38,415 nucleotides of DNA from Candidatus Gastranaerophilales bacterium. Lineage in GTDB: Bacteria; Cyanobacteriota; Vampirovibrionia; Gastranaerophilales; Gastranaerophilaceae. Shown piece by piece: positions 6,901 to 33,220 of this stretch. Every line of letters starts with the position of its first letter. Position 1 is the stretch's first letter. The notes beneath the pieces were generated by a model, which saw only the letters and a program-made list of their open reading frames with translations, was not told the DNA's origin and did no database searches. Position numbers and translations under genes: made by a program. The stretch covers positions 1 to 38,415 of the forward strand of contig CALUSA010000012.1 of assembly GCA_944323275.1 (NCBI GenBank), written 5' to 3'.

Positions 6901-6927
6901 TAAAGTTTAAGTTTTTTATGCCGATTA
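6901..6927 (+). promoter_or_regulatory. sigma-28 (FliA)-type promoter
   Basis: TAAAGTTT (6901-6908), exactly 11 bases, then GCCGATTA (6920-6927). The enterobacterial consensus is TAAAGTTT-N11-GCCGATAA, so 15 of 16 positions match at the right spacing. It lies between the SLH terminator and the ATG at 6968 and can only serve that gene. Confidence 0.75.
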
Positions 6928-6967: not shown

Positions 6968-7597
6968 ATGTTATTTAAAAGAAAATGCAAAATAACTTTT
7001 ATAGCCCACGGCGCAACACTATATACCGAAGAAAACAGAATATGCGACATCGAAAGCCATCCGCCTTTGAATGAAAGAGGTCAAGAGGAAGCAGAAAATA
7101 TTGCAAAATGGATAGTAAAACGTTCTCCTCAGGTTGATGCAATATACACAGGCGAGTCGTTAAGCTGTATTCAAACAGCAAAATATGTTGCAAAAGAGTA
7201 TGACAAAGATATAATTATCCGTACTGACTTAAAAAATCAGGAGTTCGGTATCTGGAAAGGTTTGAGTTATACGGAAATTGAAAAAAAATATCCTGAAATG
7301 CTTGACAAATACCATGAGTTTACCTCGAGCTATGCCCCCGAAGGCGGTGAAACACTGCTTGAGTTTCAGGCTCGTGTGGAATCCGTTATAAATACTTTAA
7401 TAGAAGAAAATTTGACAAAAAGAATCATTGTCGTTACACATTCAAACTTCATAAGAGCAGCAATAAGAAATGCTCTTGAACTTCCTGTAGAATTTCAAAA
7501 CAGAGTGTTTATTCCTACGGGCAGCGCAACCCAGATAAAATATTCTCAAGGCTGGAATATGCTTATGTACTGCGCTCATGTGCCGTTATCTGTTTAA
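6968..7597 (+). CDS. atypical histidine-phosphatase-superfamily protein
   Basis: A 209-residue protein with the phosphoglycerate-mutase-like fold. It keeps the nucleophile region as FIAHGAT (His14), the PLNERGQEEAENIA helix, the LSCIQTAKYVA segment, FGIWKGLSYTEIEKKYPE, GGETLLEF and the second catalytic histidine in VVTHSNFIRAAI. The usual RHG is AHG here. By hand alignment, the second phosphate-binding arginine (in LSRAxQTA) is Ser66, and the catalytic Glu of the LxE...FGxWEG motif is Asn90. It may therefore be a weak phosphatase, have another substrate, or bind phospho-ligands without turnover. It stands alone behind a sigma-28 promoter, which suggests expression with the flagellar late genes. 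The start at 6968 has only a weak GAG upstream. Superfamily membership is secure; function is not. Confidence 0.85.
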   Translation: MLFKRKCKITFIAHGATLYTEENRICDIESHPPLNERGQEEAENIAKWIVKRSPQVDAIYTGESLSCIQTAKYVAKEYDKDIIIRTDLKNQEFGIWKGLSYTEIEKKYPEMLDKYHEFTSSYAPEGGETLLEFQARVESVINTLIEENLTKRIIVVTHSNFIRAAIRNALELPVEFQNRVFIPTGSATQIKYSQGWNMLMYCAHVPLSV

Positions 7598-9747: not shown

Positions 9748-11073
9748 TTATTGTTGTCCTTCTGTAACTTCGTCTGTTGTTAATTGTTTCTCTTTATCAA
9801 ATTTCTTATATGCTATTTCTTCAGCTTTATACAATTTGTTGTACAAATCGTCAAATGCTTTTGTCAAATTATTTTCTCCTTTTTCATCAACAGAAGCATC
9901 TTTTTGTGATTTAAAAGCAGTTGATAAATTATTTATAGCATTTTGAAGTTCCTTAAGTGTAGCTTCAGGTGCTTTTTTATCGTCCACAAATTCTTGTGCT
10001 CTTGCAATTAATGCATCTGTAAGAACTTGCATAAACGGTTTTGCATCGTCGCCACCGAAAATATTCCATCCGAATAAACCATTGTTATTTCCGCCGCCCC
10101 AATTGCTGCAATCATCAAAGATTTTTTCAGCAAGGGTCAGAGTGTCGCCTTTCAAATTATTCTTTCGGTTATATGCTGTAATAATTTCCAAAACATTGTC
10201 TTTGTTTGTTTCTTCGCAAGCGTCTTCTAAGTCGTCGGTTCTTGTTGCTGCATGATTCATCGCATTATAGAATTTCATAGCAGTATCTTCATAACCGTTG
10301 GAAGATTTTGCACGTTCTCTAACGTTTTGTGGCGTTCTTTGCGCATAGTCATTTTCATCGTCGCCATCGTCGTCATCATCAGACTTTTTGTAAGCACCCG
10401 GACCTTCCGGATTCTTAGCTATTTCAAGAAGTGCTTTGTAATCTGCTGTTGTTAATTCACCTGTCTTAACAAACTTGCCTGCTATATCCCAGATTGTGTT
10501 GAAATTATCTTCACTGAGTTCGGCAGTGTCGGGTGATTTTCTGTATTCTTCGCATAAAGCTGTCAATCTGTCGATTAATTTAGCTTTAACATCTTTACCT
10601 TCTTTATTGGTATAAGTGATTTCTGTATTGAATCTTGATTTAATGTCAGGATTATTTGCCATACGTTGCAATGTTTCAACAACTTTGGCTTCTTTAACAT
10701 GTTTTTTGCCGTCAATTTTTGATGTGTCATCGTCATCGTCAGACGGGTTTGGATTTGTTATTCTTGTATTGCTGTGGAGATTTTCCATAATCTTTTTATA
10801 CATTTCAGCCTGTTGTGCCATCCATTGTTTCATCATAGGCATAATGTTGGCATAAAGGCTTGTAGACATGTCCATAAAGGAGCCTACGCTATAATCAAAG
10901 TTCATTAACTGCGTATCATTCATGCTTGAAAGAGCGTCGCAAGGATACATAACACTTGGCGGTGTGGTGTATGGAAACACGCTGTATTGCCACAAGTTAG
11001 AATTAATTGTTCTTGCACTGTCAGATGGTACTGTCACTGTCCAGGTTTTTCCAATGCTTAATCCGTCGCCCAT
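9748..11073 (-). CDS. acidic orphan protein, no signal peptide (441 aa)
   Basis: Not recognised. The N-terminus (MGDGLSIGKTWTVTVP) is neither a signal peptide nor a membrane anchor. Residues about 55-100 are Met- and Gln-rich and helical (MMKQWMAQQAEMYKKIMENL). Two acidic runs (NPSDDDDD near residue 112; KSDDDDDGDDEND near 230) separate helical blocks, and a GGGNNNGLFGWNIFGGDD glycine/asparagine stretch precedes the last helical domain. The gene has its own terminator. On the minus strand a TATATAA box (11164-11158) sits about 85 bases upstream of the ATG, and TTAGGGG serves as ribosome-binding site. In style it matches the EF-hand protein at 29469-31844. It is probably a lineage-specific extracytoplasmic or structural protein; this is unproven. 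Confidence 0.8.
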   Translation of the reverse strand: MGDGLSIGKTWTVTVPSDSARTINSNLWQYSVFPYTTPPSVMYPCDALSSMNDTQLMNFDYSVGSFMDMSTSLYANIMPMMKQWMAQQAEMYKKIMENLHSNTRITNPNPSDDDDDTSKIDGKKHVKEAKVVETLQRMANNPDIKSRFNTEITYTNKEGKDVKAKLIDRLTALCEEYRKSPDTAELSEDNFNTIWDIAGKFVKTGELTTADYKALLEIAKNPEGPGAYKKSDDDDDGDDENDYAQRTPQNVRERAKSSNGYEDTAMKFYNAMNHAATRTDDLEDACEETNKDNVLEIITAYNRKNNLKGDTLTLAEKIFDDCSNWGGGNNNGLFGWNIFGGDDAKPFMQVLTDALIARAQEFVDDKKAPEATLKELQNAINNLSTAFKSQKDASVDEKGENNLTKAFDDLYNKLYKAEEIAYKKFDKEKQLTTDEVTEGQQ

Positions 11074-19397: not shown

Positions 19398-20846
19398 TTA
19401 TGAGCTGGAACCCGTCAGCGAGGATAACGTAGACGTTAATTGTGAATACTGGTTGTTTAACGCTGCAATCTGCTGGTCCATGTAATTGAACTGCTGGGTT
19501 ATTCTTTCTCTGTATATTTCTAAATCTTCTTCTCTGTCAGCAATTTTTTCCGATAAACGTGACAATTGGCTTGATAAAGATGAACTTCTCGCAGTGAAGT
19601 ATCCGCCCTGTGCATCGAGCGCAGCATCCAAACCTTCCTGAACACGCTGCATAACTCCCTGTGTTGCTTCTTCACCGGTAATAGAGTTTGCATTAGTTCC
19701 GATTAAAAGCTCTTTTACTGCAGCAGGATTTGATTTAAAGGCTTCCATAAATTTTTCTTCATCAATAACAAGAGAAGTAGTATCCGCATCTACATCCATG
19801 CCCGGTTCCCCTGAAGTAATACCTATATCCGCAAGGGATTTGTATATACCGTCAGGATTTACAACATCGGTAACAAGGTTACGCAAACGATTTCTTATCG
19901 AAACCAGAGTAGTTTCACCGTATAAATAACCTTCCGAATCCGTTTCCGTATCCGTATCATTGATTGCTTTATTGAATGCCTCTACAAAGGATTTCAGTGC
20001 CTCAAGCACCCCTTCTGAGTCGGATTCTCTTTTTATATTAACCTTAACAACCTCGTCGCCCGTTACTTCTTTCAGTTCCAGCGACAATCCTGTTACACCG
20101 GTTTCCGCACTGGTCAAATTGTTTGAGGTTGCTTCTTTTTCTTTACCGTTTATTGTGAATTTTGCATTTTGCCCAAGGGATAAATTTGTGTCATCTGTCC
20201 ATCCTATCCAAGAAGCAAAATCAGAACCTTCGCCGTCTTCTACAATTATATCCTGTGCACCGAGATTTGTACCTTCAAGAACAATTTGTCCGTCTTCAAG
20301 ATATACGGAAACTCCTGCATCTGCGGAATTGTTGATTTCATAGATTAAACCGTCTATTGTGGTATCACCGTTAACTGCAAATGTTTCTCCGTTAATAGTG
20401 AAAGTAGCCTCTTTGTCATATCCTAATTCTGAAAGCTTTTTGGAAGAATCGGAAAAATCCAGTTGTTTGCCGTCTGCACTGTCAGGTCCGTATGTTCTTC
20501 TTGTTGTCGGACTTGCTAACTGCTGTACGCTGATTTTTACAACGGCAGGGGTCGCAAGCTGTGTTGCGGTTGCCGATAAATATTTGTTGTCTTCGTCTGA
20601 GGTTGATATCGAAATTTTTGTAAAGATATCTGCAGCCGAACCATGCAATGCGTCCGTAAATTTTAGTGTTGAATTTTCTACGGAGGTATATGTTGATTTT
20701 AATGTATTAAGAGTACTGCTTTTTTTGTTTAATTCTTCTTGCTGTGCTGTTAATGAATCAATTTTAGTCTGTTCTACTTCAACAAAAGCACTAATCCATT
20801 CATCAATTGGCAAGCCTGATCCGACACCAGAAAATGATATAGACAT
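19398..20846 (-). CDS. fliD: flagellar hook-associated protein 2 (filament cap)
   Basis: A 482-residue FliD, which caps the flagellar filament and assists flagellin insertion. It has the N-terminal SFSGVGSGLPIDEWISAFVE motif (variant of GxxSGxD), a leading coiled coil (KIDSLTAQQEELNKKSSTLN), the central beta-domains, and a C-terminal heptad-rich helix (MDQQIAALNNQYSQLTSTLS) typical of FliD. A TTG at 20852 is in frame, but the ATG at 20846 has GAGG nine bases upstream. A sigma-28-like promoter lies upstream, as expected for late flagellar genes. fliS and a further chaperone gene lie 17 kb away instead of being adjacent. Confidence 0.93.
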   Translation of the reverse strand: MSISFSGVGSGLPIDEWISAFVEVEQTKIDSLTAQQEELNKKSSTLNTLKSTYTSVENSTLKFTDALHGSAADIFTKISISTSDEDNKYLSATATQLATPAVVKISVQQLASPTTRRTYGPDSADGKQLDFSDSSKKLSELGYDKEATFTINGETFAVNGDTTIDGLIYEINNSADAGVSVYLEDGQIVLEGTNLGAQDIIVEDGEGSDFASWIGWTDDTNLSLGQNAKFTINGKEKEATSNNLTSAETGVTGLSLELKEVTGDEVVKVNIKRESDSEGVLEALKSFVEAFNKAINDTDTETDSEGYLYGETTLVSIRNRLRNLVTDVVNPDGIYKSLADIGITSGEPGMDVDADTTSLVIDEEKFMEAFKSNPAAVKELLIGTNANSITGEEATQGVMQRVQEGLDAALDAQGGYFTARSSSLSSQLSRLSEKIADREEDLEIYRERITQQFNYMDQQIAALNNQYSQLTSTLSSLTGSSS

Positions 20847-20928
20847 ACACAATTACCTCATTTTATTTACATCTAATATAATATTAGTTATAAATTTGTG
20901 TTATTAGTATCCTGCATCTGAATTATTT

Positions 20929-20955
20929 TTATTTGCTGCAATTTTGGAAACTTTA
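20929..20955 (-). promoter_or_regulatory. weaker sigma-28-like promoter of fliD
   Basis: On the minus strand: TAAAGTTT (20955-20948), exactly 11 bases, then GCAAATAA (20936-20929). The -35 part is perfect; the -10 part matches 6 of 8 of GCCGATAA. Confidence 0.5.
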
Positions 20956-29419: not shown

Positions 29420-29447
29420 GGGAAAAGTATTAAAAAATACTTTTCCC
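29420..29447 (-). terminator. terminator of the EF-hand protein gene
   Basis: GGGAAAAGTATT and AATACTTTTCCC form a perfect 12-bp stem with a 4-base loop, followed on the minus strand by CATTTTTT. It lies 21 bases after the stop. Confidence 0.9.
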
Positions 29448-29468: not shown

Positions 29469-31844
29469 TTATTCTTCTTTTTCTTTTTCTTTTTTGTATT
29501 TATCAAGTTTATCTTCAAAGTTATCAAAGAAGTTGTCATACATTTCATTGGCGTTAAATGCATAGCGTTCACGAATGCCGCCTTTCGTATCCCAATAATC
29601 ATAGGCGTCTACTGTTTCGTTAATAGCCTGATCAATCATTGTGGAAACATCTGTTTCAATGTAATTATCGCCTAATATAGTTTGAGCTTGTGCTATTAAG
29701 GAAGCTCTCAACATTTCAAGTTTTGACTTAGCGAGATTTTTTACATCAGTTTTTGCATTGCCGGAACTCCAGTGTGTTCCGCCTCTGTTTTCGCCGCTAG
29801 CGTAGTCATCAACAGCACCTGAATCTTTTAATGTCTGTTTTCTGTCAATTGTACCACTGTCATTTGTATTTTCACCTTTGAGACCTTTTGTTGCAATATC
29901 GTTAAATTCAGCAATGATACCGTTTACAAAGGTTTCTACATCAACTGTATTGCCGGAGCCGTTGGCTTGGTTATATATTCGTTGCAAGAATTTATTTTTA
30001 CCGTCGTATACAGCTGTTTTACCTGTACCAAGATTCATCAAATTATTGAGAACTGCTTCATCAAAGAATTGTTCAATTTGTGCTTCATCATAAAGCTCAC
30101 CGAGTTGGGCTTTCATTTCAGATTTAATTCTGTTTTCAAGTTGTTGAAGTATCTTTTCTATGTCGCCTTTATCGTTTGAATTTGTCCACGTGATTGTACC
30201 GTCATCACCAACATTGAATGATGGAATAATCAGATCATCACCGCCATACGTATCATTTGAGTTATATCCCCAGATACCTTCAGCTATATCGTTAGACAGG
30301 TTAACGTTTTTGGCTTCATTCGTTTTGACACCTTTTACTATATTGTCTACACCGTAATCTTTTAACATGTTATTCAAAAGTTCACGGATTTTTTCATAGT
30401 CTTCTTTCGGTGTAGCAGATGTTGCAAGTCCGTCAAACAATGCTTTTGCCTCAAGATAATCTGGATTTGACTCAAAGTTCGGGTAGATTTCTTCAACGAT
30501 TGATGTATCATCGCCCGAAACCATTGTGTTCATAAATAAATCAGTTGCCGCATCGATTATGTTTTGTTCTTCTTCATCTGTAATATAGGCACCTGCCGAT
30601 TCAACCTGACTTACAAGGTTGTTATAGCCAAGAGAATCACCGTCACTGGCTCTTGTTGTCGTACTGTTTATATCATATTCAATAATTTCGTACTGGGCTG
30701 TGATTTCATCAAAGAATTTTTTGAATTCTTCTTCAATATCGCCTGTACCTTCATAGTTTTCAAGGAATTCATTGATTGCGTTATTCAATCTGGTTGTGTA
30801 GTCATCCAAATCTTTCTGACCTGCATCAGATCTTGTATCTATCTGTGTAGAATATTTTTCCGCCATTTGATCAGCTAAATTTTGCAAAGCTTCCAGCTGT
30901 TCAGCTTTTTCTGCATTGTCATGTTTTGTATTAATTGCGGTTGTAAGATAAGATGAACCGTCTGTATTTTGCGGTCCGATAAGTTTTGCAATAGCTTCTT
31001 CAGCTTTTTCTAAATATTCCTTCATTTTGACAGGGTCTGTTTGTGCCTGCATAGTTTGGATGGCATTATAAGCATTGATATAGTTAATATTATTTTTATA
31101 CTTAGGGTTTAATGCAGTAAGAAATTCTTCATCAATTTCTCCTGATAATAATTGTCCAATGATATAATCAACAGCCTTATCTTTTAATGCCTGATATTCA
31201 TCCGGATCCATGTAATTGCCTACATTGTTTGCGTCAGAATATAATACTTCAAAGTTTCCTGCTGCTTCTTTTTTTGTTTCAATTTCTTCATTAAAGGCAT
31301 CAACACCTTCCTGACGTGTGGTAAATGCCTCATCCATTGCCTGAATGTAAGCTGCTGATACTGCTTCCATATCGTATGGACCTTCGGGGTTATCTTGTAA
31401 ATACTCATTTAAAAATTCTGCTTTTTGATTTTTTAAATAAGTAATAACATTTGAAGCGTCATCTTCGACTCCTGCTTCTTCAATAATTTTTTCAATATAT
31501 TGGCTTTCGACTTTAGTTAAAAATGTTTCAAGTTCTGCTGCATCGTCTGCAGTTCTTTCAGCACCGTTATTTAAAGCAGCGTTATATATTCCTAAACCTC
31601 TGCTGTCCAGTTCAGGTGCAGGTTCTTTCGGTTCTTCGGGCGTTTCCGTACCTGTGTTGTTTTCAACACCATCGTCAATTTGTACTTCACCTTCATCGTC
31701 CGGTGCTTGTGAAACAAGCCAGCTCATGTTGTCCTGCAATTCTTCATAAGACACAATACCGTCTTTGTTTGCGTCTAACTGTTGAATCTCCTCTGCCGAG
31801 AGTGCCTTCCCTGTAAAAGGATTAAAATTTACGCCATCAACCAT
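29469..31844 (-). CDS. large acidic EF-hand protein (791 aa), sigma-28 controlled
   Basis: Not recognised as a whole. An EF-hand calcium loop is visible near the N-terminus (about residues 24-35, DANKDGIVSYEE with D, N, D, G and E at the canonical places), followed by an acidic linker (about 50-80). Most of the rest is helical and rich in Asp, Glu, Asn and Ala, with alternating helices and NG/DG turns and no obvious exact repeats. There is no signal peptide or membrane segment; the N-terminus is MVDGVNFNPFTGKALS. AAGGAG precedes the ATG. A near-consensus sigma-28 promoter upstream makes it a late-flagellar-regulon gene. It could be exported through the flagellar system or be a cytoplasmic partner; calcium binding is inferred from the loop only. 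It is monocistronic with a strong terminator. Confidence 0.85.
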   Translation of the reverse strand: MVDGVNFNPFTGKALSAEEIQQLDANKDGIVSYEELQDNMSWLVSQAPDDEGEVQIDDGVENNTGTETPEEPKEPAPELDSRGLGIYNAALNNGAERTADDAAELETFLTKVESQYIEKIIEEAGVEDDASNVITYLKNQKAEFLNEYLQDNPEGPYDMEAVSAAYIQAMDEAFTTRQEGVDAFNEEIETKKEAAGNFEVLYSDANNVGNYMDPDEYQALKDKAVDYIIGQLLSGEIDEEFLTALNPKYKNNINYINAYNAIQTMQAQTDPVKMKEYLEKAEEAIAKLIGPQNTDGSSYLTTAINTKHDNAEKAEQLEALQNLADQMAEKYSTQIDTRSDAGQKDLDDYTTRLNNAINEFLENYEGTGDIEEEFKKFFDEITAQYEIIEYDINSTTTRASDGDSLGYNNLVSQVESAGAYITDEEEQNIIDAATDLFMNTMVSGDDTSIVEEIYPNFESNPDYLEAKALFDGLATSATPKEDYEKIRELLNNMLKDYGVDNIVKGVKTNEAKNVNLSNDIAEGIWGYNSNDTYGGDDLIIPSFNVGDDGTITWTNSNDKGDIEKILQQLENRIKSEMKAQLGELYDEAQIEQFFDEAVLNNLMNLGTGKTAVYDGKNKFLQRIYNQANGSGNTVDVETFVNGIIAEFNDIATKGLKGENTNDSGTIDRKQTLKDSGAVDDYASGENRGGTHWSSGNAKTDVKNLAKSKLEMLRASLIAQAQTILGDNYIETDVSTMIDQAINETVDAYDYWDTKGGIRERYAFNANEMYDNFFDNFEDKLDKYKKEKEKEE

Positions 31845-31884
31845 AATTTTAGTTACTCCTTATATTTTCCCTGTTATGCTATAC

Positions 31885-31911
31885 CTATCGGCAATTTTTT
31901 TTATAACTTTA
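31885..31911 (-). promoter_or_regulatory. near-consensus sigma-28 (FliA) promoter
   Basis: On the minus strand: TAAAGTTA (31911-31904), exactly 11 bases, GCCGATAG (31892-31885). It matches TAAAGTTT-N11-GCCGATAA at 14 of 16 positions and lies 40 bases before the EF-hand gene's ATG. Confidence 0.8.
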
Positions 31912-31973
31912 GGGTAATTAAAACAAATATTAAGATTTTGTTACAAAGGTGTAAAAATTAGCATTTTTATTGC

Positions 31974-32017: not shown

Positions 32018-32764
32018 ATGCAGAATTATCAGGTAGGCTATCAACCATATACCCAGACGCAAAGTGTGCCGCAGGCAATGACAGGCTCTACTTCTGGTGC
32101 AACATTTAACATCGGCACGGGGACACCGGGGAGCATACCGACAAACGCAAGCGGTGTTACTATTAATATTATCGGGGCATCCGTAAACCCGAACGGTGCT
32201 AATATCTATAATAATAACGGAACAACACAGGCTCCGTCACCGAATAATGCTTATGATAAATCGTATTACACAATGCAGCCTCCTATGTATAATATGCCGG
32301 CACCTACTGTTCCCGTCGGGGCATCAAGCTTGAATACAAACCAGAAAACCGAAGAAAAACCTAAAAAAGATATTGTTTTACTAACGGATGATTATATAAA
32401 AACACTTGAAAACTATATAAGAAACGACAATCCCGAAATAAAATTAATGGGCGCAAAAGAGTTGATGCAGCGTTTTAGAGAAGATGAATCAAGAAAAAAT
32501 GACCCTGCCTTGACAGCCTTGTTGAACTTATTACTTCAAAGTAAATACTCAAATGTAAAAATGATTGGTACAAGCATACTTGAAAATGGCTGGGCACAGG
32601 GTGATGCTCTTACACAACAGCTTTTAACTCAAATGCAGCAATCTAATACCGGCTACGGGTTAGATGCTCTCGATGCTGCTAAAGCAGCTTTAAAAACAGC
32701 AGGTCAAACAGTTAAAGTAGATGACCCGAATCCGCCTAAAAAAGAAGAAACAAAAAGTAAATAA
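32018..32764 (+). CDS. orphan protein with disordered N-terminus and helical C-terminal domain
   Basis: 248 residues. The first 110 are low-complexity, rich in Gly, Ser, Thr, Asn, Pro and Tyr, with a beta-like GVTINIIGASVNPNGANIYN stretch. Residues about 120-225 are helical and resemble HEAT/armadillo-type repeats (KLMGAKELMQRFREDESRK; ALTALLNLLLQSKYSNVKM). A Lys/Pro-rich tail follows. It has no signal peptide. AAGG lies seven bases before the ATG. It is 18 bases upstream of the next gene, so the two form an operon. No family recognised; a protein-binding scaffold is the likeliest role. Confidence 0.75.
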   Translation: MQNYQVGYQPYTQTQSVPQAMTGSTSGATFNIGTGTPGSIPTNASGVTINIIGASVNPNGANIYNNNGTTQAPSPNNAYDKSYYTMQPPMYNMPAPTVPVGASSLNTNQKTEEKPKKDIVLLTDDYIKTLENYIRNDNPEIKLMGAKELMQRFREDESRKNDPALTALLNLLLQSKYSNVKMIGTSILENGWAQGDALTQQLLTQMQQSNTGYGLDALDAAKAALKTAGQTVKVDDPNPPKKEETKSK

Positions 32765-32782
32765 CAAAAAGCAGGTTTATGT

Positions 32783-33220
32783 ATGAACAAATGGAATATC
32801 GCAGCAAAAGTAGCGGGCACAATAACAGCAGGCATGGTTTTGTACAATGCTCACGATGTCGGTAAAAAGCATTCTGAAGAAAAGGTCAAAGAAAAAACCG
32901 CCGCAAGATTGACAAAGCTTTATGTACGCTCCAGAAGAATGGAGGATTTAAGCGAAACAACAAGTAAATTAAAAGACTGGTATTTTAAAACCAATGCCGA
33001 TTGGAATTTTCCTGACAAAATCAATGCAATAACAGGTTATTTCTCGGGGGCGTTTAAGCAAATGACCTCTGATGTTGTACCGGCAATACTTGCTACGGGT
33101 GCACTTCTCAGCAAGAAAATGGCAAAAGTATTTTCTATAGGTTTGTTATTGTACGGAATTAAGTACCTGTTGTTCGATGTAATAGATATAGGGCGTCCAA
33201 ACCGTCTTAAGGGTGAATAA
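32783..33220 (+). CDS. orphan membrane protein (145 aa)
   Basis: Begins MNKWNIAAKVAGTITAGMVL with a short N-terminal hydrophobic helix (7-22), then a highly charged stretch (KKHSEEKVKEKTAARLTKLY) and two hydrophobic helices near the C-terminus (about 99-113 and 117-133) before GRPNRLKGE. A membrane location is likely. The gene follows 32018-32764 by 18 bases. Its last 14 bases overlap the 3' end of the convergent cyclo-ligase gene. Family not recognised. Confidence 0.72.
   Translation: MNKWNIAAKVAGTITAGMVLYNAHDVGKKHSEEKVKEKTAARLTKLYVRSRRMEDLSETTSKLKDWYFKTNADWNFPDKINAITGYFSGAFKQMTSDVVPAILATGALLSKKMAKVFSIGLLLYGIKYLLFDVIDIGRPNRLKGE

What the first reader, a model, noticed from the sequence alone, without database searches (positions are those of the whole stretch)
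29469..31911. Giant acidic EF-hand protein under a near-consensus flagellar sigma-28 promoter
TAAAGTTA-N11-GCCGATAG stands 40 bases before a 791-residue protein of unknown family that has an EF-hand loop, no signal peptide and its own terminator. The promoter places it in the late flagellar regulon. It could be a flagellum-exported protein, a calcium-responsive motility factor or a structural element of this lineage.
Basis: partly seen in the sequence, partly recalled or inferred. Interest (0 to 1): 0.72.

Follow-up and report, generated by a model that had tools for sequence, protein, structure and literature searches.

The report
Sigma-28 protein with shared N-terminal tag
In a genus of uncultured gut relatives of cyanobacteria, a long, acidic, cysteine-free protein is switched on by the sigma factor that normally controls flagella, and it starts with a short calcium-binding tag that also heads several unrelated proteins under the same switch, which suggests that the tag marks them for export.

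Summary
A perfect TAAAGTT-N12-GCCGATA site lies 41 nt before a 791-aa acidic ORF (pI 4.1, no cysteine, no signal peptide) with one canonical EF-hand loop and its own terminator. The genome is a Candidatus Gastranaerophilales MAG and encodes FliA. It has 11 exact sigma-28 sites against 0 for the reversed pattern, and 9 of the 11 sit just before a gene. The site is kept in orthologues of 19 of 20 genomes, in 9 of them in front of a small leader gene. The protein is specific to one genus: the 57-residue N-terminus (invariant MVDxVxxNPF, EF-hand, D-x-E-G-x-V) is its best conserved part. The same tag, or its NPF...EG core without the EF-hand, heads proteins with four unrelated bodies, nearly all behind sigma-28-like sites. 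Best reading (about 50%): an export/targeting tag on FliA-controlled proteins sent out through a flagellar-type type III apparatus, like Campylobacter Feds/FspA but not homologous. Caveat: no flagellin gene in this genome has a comparable box, and FliA plus a second FliF/FliH/FlhA/FliI set persist in flagellin-less relatives. "FliA regulon" is therefore better supported than "late flagellar regulon". Export and calcium binding are not shown.

The parts
31885..31911 (-). sigma-28 (FliA) promoter TAAAGTTA-N11-GCCGATAG
   Evidence: exact match, one of 11 in the genome vs 0 control; conserved upstream of orthologues or of their leader gene
31868..31874 (-). ACAGGGA in the 5' leader, possible CsrA (GGA) site near the transcript start
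   Evidence: conserved in nearly all relatives' leaders; csrA is encoded. Binding not shown; 2.3 matches expected in the window by chance
31856..31861 (-). Shine-Dalgarno AAGGAG, second GGA
   Evidence: sequence, conserved
29469..31844 (-). 791-aa acidic, cysteine-free, mostly helical protein
   Evidence: orthologues in the genus
31674..31844 (-). N-terminal module, residues 1-57: MVDGVNFNPF + EF-hand + DDEGEVQI; candidate export/targeting tag
   Evidence: mean pairwise identity 0.62 vs 0.35 for residues 80-791, 1.0 for residues 1-10; shared with proteins of unrelated bodies
31740..31775 (-). canonical EF-hand calcium loop, residues 24-35
30969..31550 (-). helical repeat A, residues 99-292
   Evidence: profile match to repeat B, hhalign probability 99.4, E 6e-22; AF2 model
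30354..30917 (-). helical repeat B, residues 310-497
29883..30200 (-). helical repeat C, residues 549-654
   Evidence: profile match to repeat D, probability 98.6, E 1e-15
29496..29783 (-). helical repeat D, residues 688-783
29420..29447 (-). intrinsic terminator, 12-bp stem then ATTTTTT

Best explanation
The gene belongs to the FliA (sigma-28) regulon of a Gastranaerophilales genus and encodes a genus-specific, exported, calcium-binding, extended helical-repeat protein. The first 57 residues (NPF motif, one EF-hand loop, D-x-E-G-x-V strand) act as a portable targeting tag that brings this and other FliA-driven proteins to a flagellar-type type III export apparatus, either the flagellum or the second FliF/FliH/FlhA/FliI set; the body then acts outside the cell as an acidic spacer, coat or effector-like protein. 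Shown: the promoter and its conservation, FliA in the genome, the module and its reuse on unrelated bodies, cysteine depletion, repeats, no Sec signal. Inferred: FliA-dependent transcription, calcium binding, export, the route, the extracellular role.
For: Exact sigma-28 site, genome-wide enrichment and position before genes. FliA present. Site conserved across orthologues, moved to the head of the operon where a 69-72 aa NPF leader gene precedes the gene. The NPF...EG tag heads the giant and ~700-aa proteins (homologous helical repeats), 205-239 aa proteins with a Gly/Lys-rich amphipathic end, the leader, and 234/339-aa proteins; these four body classes do not match each other by blastp at 1e-3, and most members have sigma-28-like sites. 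The tag is far more conserved than the body. Cysteine 0.075% in 18 giant proteins vs 1.33% in the window's soluble proteins, as in axial flagellar proteins (established knowledge). A repeat-body paralogue in G003 ends next to a flgB-like/flgC/fliE run. Every genome with the protein encodes flagellin.
Against: No export signal can be proved from sequence. The own genome carries only one protein with this tag, so the family evidence comes from relatives. Four flagellin genes lack the box, so sharing the regulon with flagellar structure is weak. Flagellin co-occurrence is confounded by ancestry (one genus plus one more genome). Low cysteine can have other causes; the other NPF classes are less depleted (0.26-0.43%). 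The protein is absent from most flagellated genera, so it is no core flagellar part.
Confidence: 0.5

Rival explanations
1. A cytoplasmic FliA-regulon protein: the N-terminal module docks several co-regulated proteins on one shared partner (motor, chemotaxis array, pole or chaperone), and calcium tunes that contact; nothing is exported.
For: EF-hand loop with invariant ligands; a shared module equally fits a docking domain; no independent proof of export.
Against: Strong cysteine depletion; variable repeat number and lineage restriction look like surface proteins; a 69-aa protein that is little more than the tag plus a tail is hard to place as a sensor.
Confidence: 0.25
2. A narrower form of the best explanation: the tag family is exported by the second FliF-FliH-FlhA-FliI apparatus rather than by the flagellum; FliA in this order mainly serves that apparatus, hence its retention in flagellin-less genomes.
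For: All 20 listed flagellin-less genomes of the family keep a FliA and 19 keep the second FlhA; two FliA targets (HD-GYP protein, GHL10 protein) flank the second cluster in G006; flagellins lack the box.
Against: The tag family itself is found only in flagellin-positive genomes; a paralogue neighbours flagellar rod genes.
Confidence: 0.25
3. The common N-terminus is only the remnant of gene duplication and fusion and keeps its sequence for a regulatory reason at the mRNA level (promoter, CsrA site, start region).
For: The 5' leader (TACAGGGA, AAGGAG) is conserved together with the tag; csrA present.
Against: Conservation reaches residue 57 at protein level and keeps the EF-hand ligands; bodies are unrelated.
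Confidence: 0.1
4. The promoter match is fortuitous and the gene is read from a sigma-70 promoter.
For: AT-rich region with weak sigma-70-like matches near 31926-31955 (-).
Against: Site enrichment and conservation; sigma-70-like count is no higher than in shuffles (13 vs 10.0, sd 3.0).
Confidence: 0.04

Closest known systems
Campylobacter Feds and FspA (sigma-28-dependent, non-flagellar proteins tied to flagellar secretion; PMC9856085)
   Same: sigma-28 promoter, co-expressed with flagella, not needed for the flagellum itself; FspA is acidic
   Different: homology was not tested and none is known; here a shared N-terminal EF-hand/NPF tag on several bodies and a long repeat protein; secretion untested
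XopAW, calcium-binding type III effector family (NCBIfam NF041410)
   Same: EF-hand-bearing protein; weak profile hit over the EF-hand region (14.9 bits)
   Different: far under the cut-off of 120; not a member
Flagellar axial and cap proteins (flagellin, FliD, FlgK/L, hook)
   Same: low cysteine, helical, sigma-28 control in other bacteria
   Different: no Pfam match to any of them
EF-hand superfamily (calmodulin, polcalcin, bacterial EF-hand proteins)
   Same: one canonical 12-residue loop; best PDB sequence hits over residues 18-60 are calmodulin-like (E 0.06-0.3)
   Different: single canonical loop, body unrelated; a second loop is at best degenerate (D-x-E-G-x-V-x-I)

Membership tests
FliA (sigma-28) regulon | consensus TAAAGTTT-N11-GCCGATAA promoter at the right distance from the start codon | tested here: met
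FliA (sigma-28) regulon | genome encodes FliA | tested here: met
   TIGR02479 229.7 bits vs 189.6; NF005413 219.6 vs 201
FliA (sigma-28) regulon | site conserved in orthologues | tested here: met
   19 of 20 genomes, directly or before the leader gene, several degenerate
FliA (sigma-28) regulon | FliA-dependent transcription | not testable with these tools
   needs RNA data
late flagellar genes | shares the promoter class with the flagellins of the same genome | tested here: not met
   four flagellins and flgL lack a box with two or fewer mismatches at the usual spacing; L061 has only TTAAGTTTTTGCGTATCAGACGATA at -274 with a short spacer
EF-hand superfamily | canonical loop D-x-[DNS]-x-[DNS]-G-x-[ILV]-[DNS]-x-x-E | tested here: met
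   residues 24-35; D24, S32, E35 invariant
EF-hand superfamily | Pfam EF-hand score over the curated cut-off | tested here: not met
   18.1 vs 25.9 bits
EF-hand superfamily | binds calcium | not testable with these tools
   needs a binding assay
flagellum-secreted non-flagellar proteins (Fed/FspA type) | no Sec signal, sigma-28 control | tested here: met
flagellum-secreted non-flagellar proteins (Fed/FspA type) | secretion that depends on the flagellar apparatus | not testable with these tools
   needs an export assay
flagellin/FliD/hook/rod structural proteins | family domain present | tested here: not met
   no Pfam match
XopAW type III effectors | NCBIfam NF041410 over cut-off | tested here: not met
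   14.9 vs 120 bits

The most novel reading that the evidence does not exclude
The NPF/EF-hand N-terminus is a new, calcium-responsive export tag for a flagellum-derived secretion route: Gastranaerophilales use FliA with a second, filament-less flagellar-type apparatus to put out a mosaic set of proteins in the animal gut, and this 791-residue protein is the largest common passenger.
Probability: 0.25. Interest if true: 0.85.

Novelty: new variant of a known kind. Interest (0 to 1): 0.6.

Why it matters
Which proteins uncultured gut Melainabacteria send out, and by what route, is unknown as far as I could find. A portable, recognisable N-terminal tag tied to FliA would give a direct handle on their secretome, and the retention of FliA and of a second export set in non-motile relatives gives a testable reason why 'partial flagellar gene sets' survive there (described as unable to encode a functional flagellum in PMC4040986).

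Tried and rejected
Pfam, NCBIfam and PHROGs searches of the protein gave nothing over cut-off. PDB sequence search found mainly calmodulin-like hits over the EF-hand. AF2 models of the whole protein (pLDDT 80.5, pTM 0.46) and of residues 1-312 (84.0, 0.62) had no Foldseek match at E <= 0.001 and only Z < 7 helical resemblances, sigma-factor and catenin/vinculin helices among them, which I treat as common helical arrangements. The Pfam hits to apolipoprotein, DUF445 and TetR are weak helical noise. I considered a core flagellar structural protein and rejected it: absent from most flagellated genera, no family domain. Weak tag-profile hits in other genera (E about 1e-3) proved to be other EF-hand proteins without the NPF start, mostly without a sigma-28 box; one of them (L118) does have a one-mismatch site. 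The whole genome was not available as a file, so the regulon was taken from pattern searches and stretches only.

Full report
What was checked. The site TAAAGTTA-N11-GCCGATAG is at 31885-31911 (-), 41 nt before the ATG of a 791-aa ORF at 29469-31844 (-). The ORF product has pI 4.1, 20.5% Asp+Glu, no cysteine and no hydrophobic N-terminus. Residues 24-35 are a canonical EF-hand loop. A 12-bp hairpin with a T run at 29447-29420 (-) ends the unit.

Chance. The window is contig 12 of a 2.27-Mb MAG; related records are titled Candidatus Gastranaerophilales. TAAAGTT-N12/13-GCCGATA occurs 11 times in this genome and 0 times reversed; 25 genomes give one reversed hit. Nine of the 11 own sites have an ATG ORF starting 15-75 nt downstream on the same strand, none on the mirror side. 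FliA is encoded on contig 54 beside flhB, fliR, fliQ and fliP. The site is therefore a real FliA promoter by all computable criteria; dependence on FliA is inferred.

Conservation. Relatives of the protein occur in 22 of 23 same-genus genomes and one other genome of the family. Of 20 genomes where the start of the NPF/EF-hand gene can be read, 10 have the box directly upstream, G021 with a longer spacer and three mismatches. In nine others the gene follows a 69-72 aa gene (MTGPINFNPF...DEEGLVNL) whose upstream region carries the box, degenerate in G011 and G013. G022 has no convincing box. The -35 half is kept more strictly than the -10 half.

The tag. Residues 1-10 are identical in all 16 full-length relatives; mean pairwise identity is 0.62 over residues 1-57 and 0.35 over residues 80-791. 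In six genomes a 205-239 aa protein carries the whole module (about 50-54% identity) and an unrelated Gly/Lys-rich end. The NPF...EG core without the EF-hand heads ~700-aa proteins whose bodies share the helical repeats, the 69-aa leader, and 234/339-aa proteins. Body-to-body blastp finds no match between the four body classes. Most of these genes have sigma-28-like sites of 0-3 mismatches. Repeat-body paralogues also occur with other EF-hand N-termini. In the own genome the tag is found once.

The body. It holds two pairs of helical repeats (residues 99-292 with 310-497; 549-654 with 688-783). Orthologues range from 762 to about 990 residues, with paralogues to 1251 and a tandem copy in G019. 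AF2 models it as mostly helical with no matching solved fold. Cysteine is 11 in 14,655 residues of 18 giant proteins, against 69 in 5,202 residues of soluble window proteins.

Flagellum or not. A repeat-body paralogue in G003 lies next to flgC and fliE and a flgB-like gene. Every genome with the protein has flagellin, but these are one genus and one more genome. The own flagellin genes lack a comparable box. Seventy-three of 118 genomes have flagellin, 109 have a FliA and 112 an FHIPEP protein. Flagellin-less genomes of the family that are listed keep only the FlhA form of about 712-736 bits (one, G065, as fragments). In G006 that form sits in a FliF-X-FliH-FlhA-FliI run. In flagellin-less G027, FliF, FliH and this FlhA remain, with rod-type genes and an HD-GYP gene near fliA. 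So either apparatus could be the exporter.

Mechanism. Best reading: FliA turns the operon on, CsrA may hold translation through TACAGGGA/AAGGAG (csrA present; inferred), the tag brings the unfolded protein to a type III gate, and calcium outside the cell folds or locks the EF-hand. The last two steps are inference. Campylobacter Feds and FspA show that sigma-28-driven non-flagellar proteins exist and are linked to flagellar secretion (PMC9856085), so it may work like these but is not shown to be a member of them.

Verdict. Observation confirmed, interpretation partly supported, new variant of a known kind.

Noticed in passing
G000:C69:7401-10856 (L143); L151:5810-12776; L222:8510-14063: A second FliF-X-FliH-FlhA-FliI set, distinct from flagellar FlhA (about 725 vs 865 bits), occurs across Gastranaerophilales, including flagellin-less genomes that keep FliA and rod-type genes.
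   Followed up: partly
L061-L064 upstream regions: Flagellin genes lack near-consensus sigma-28 boxes; two (L062, L064) have TATACTAAAGTATA-like palindromes upstream, maybe an operator or another promoter type.
   Followed up: no
window 31868-31874 and leaders of related genes: TACAGGGA just after the sigma-28 -10 box in nearly all tag-family leaders, and TACAAGGATGT before flagellin L061, resemble CsrA sites; csrA is at G000:C16:12340.
   Followed up: partly
L074:3306-5060 (-): A 584-aa protein behind an exact sigma-28 site, with an EF-hand-like DISGDGVINKGKE and a Cys-His-Asp (NCGE, THVAV, VDTW) transglutaminase/protease-like pattern; no Pfam match.
   Followed up: partly
L084-L089: 205-239 aa tag proteins end in Gly/Lys-rich amphipathic repeats; one (L084) has weak tape-measure-like PHROG hits.
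   Followed up: partly
window 6901-6927 (+) and 20929-20955 (-): Further sigma-28-like sites: one mismatch before a histidine-phosphatase-like gene (6968-7597), two mismatches before fliD (19398-20852).
   Followed up: partly
L076, L078, L212, L216, L217: Other own-genome genes behind sigma-28 sites: GHL10 glycosidase-like, prepilin-like, HD-GYP-like, a 1131-aa and a 126-aa protein of unknown family.
   Followed up: partly
L038 and L042: The G017 and G009 copies of the gene end early at a TAA (326 and 300 aa); pseudogenes or assembly errors.
   Followed up: no
window 32018-33220 (+); L146:5886-7056; L053: The divergent neighbours (248 and 145 aa, unknown) stay beside the gene in another genus (both) and in G010 (248-aa one seen), so the locus is syntenic.
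   Followed up: no
window 9748-11073 (-): A 441-aa acidic protein of unknown family with a weak WXG100-like hit.
   Followed up: no
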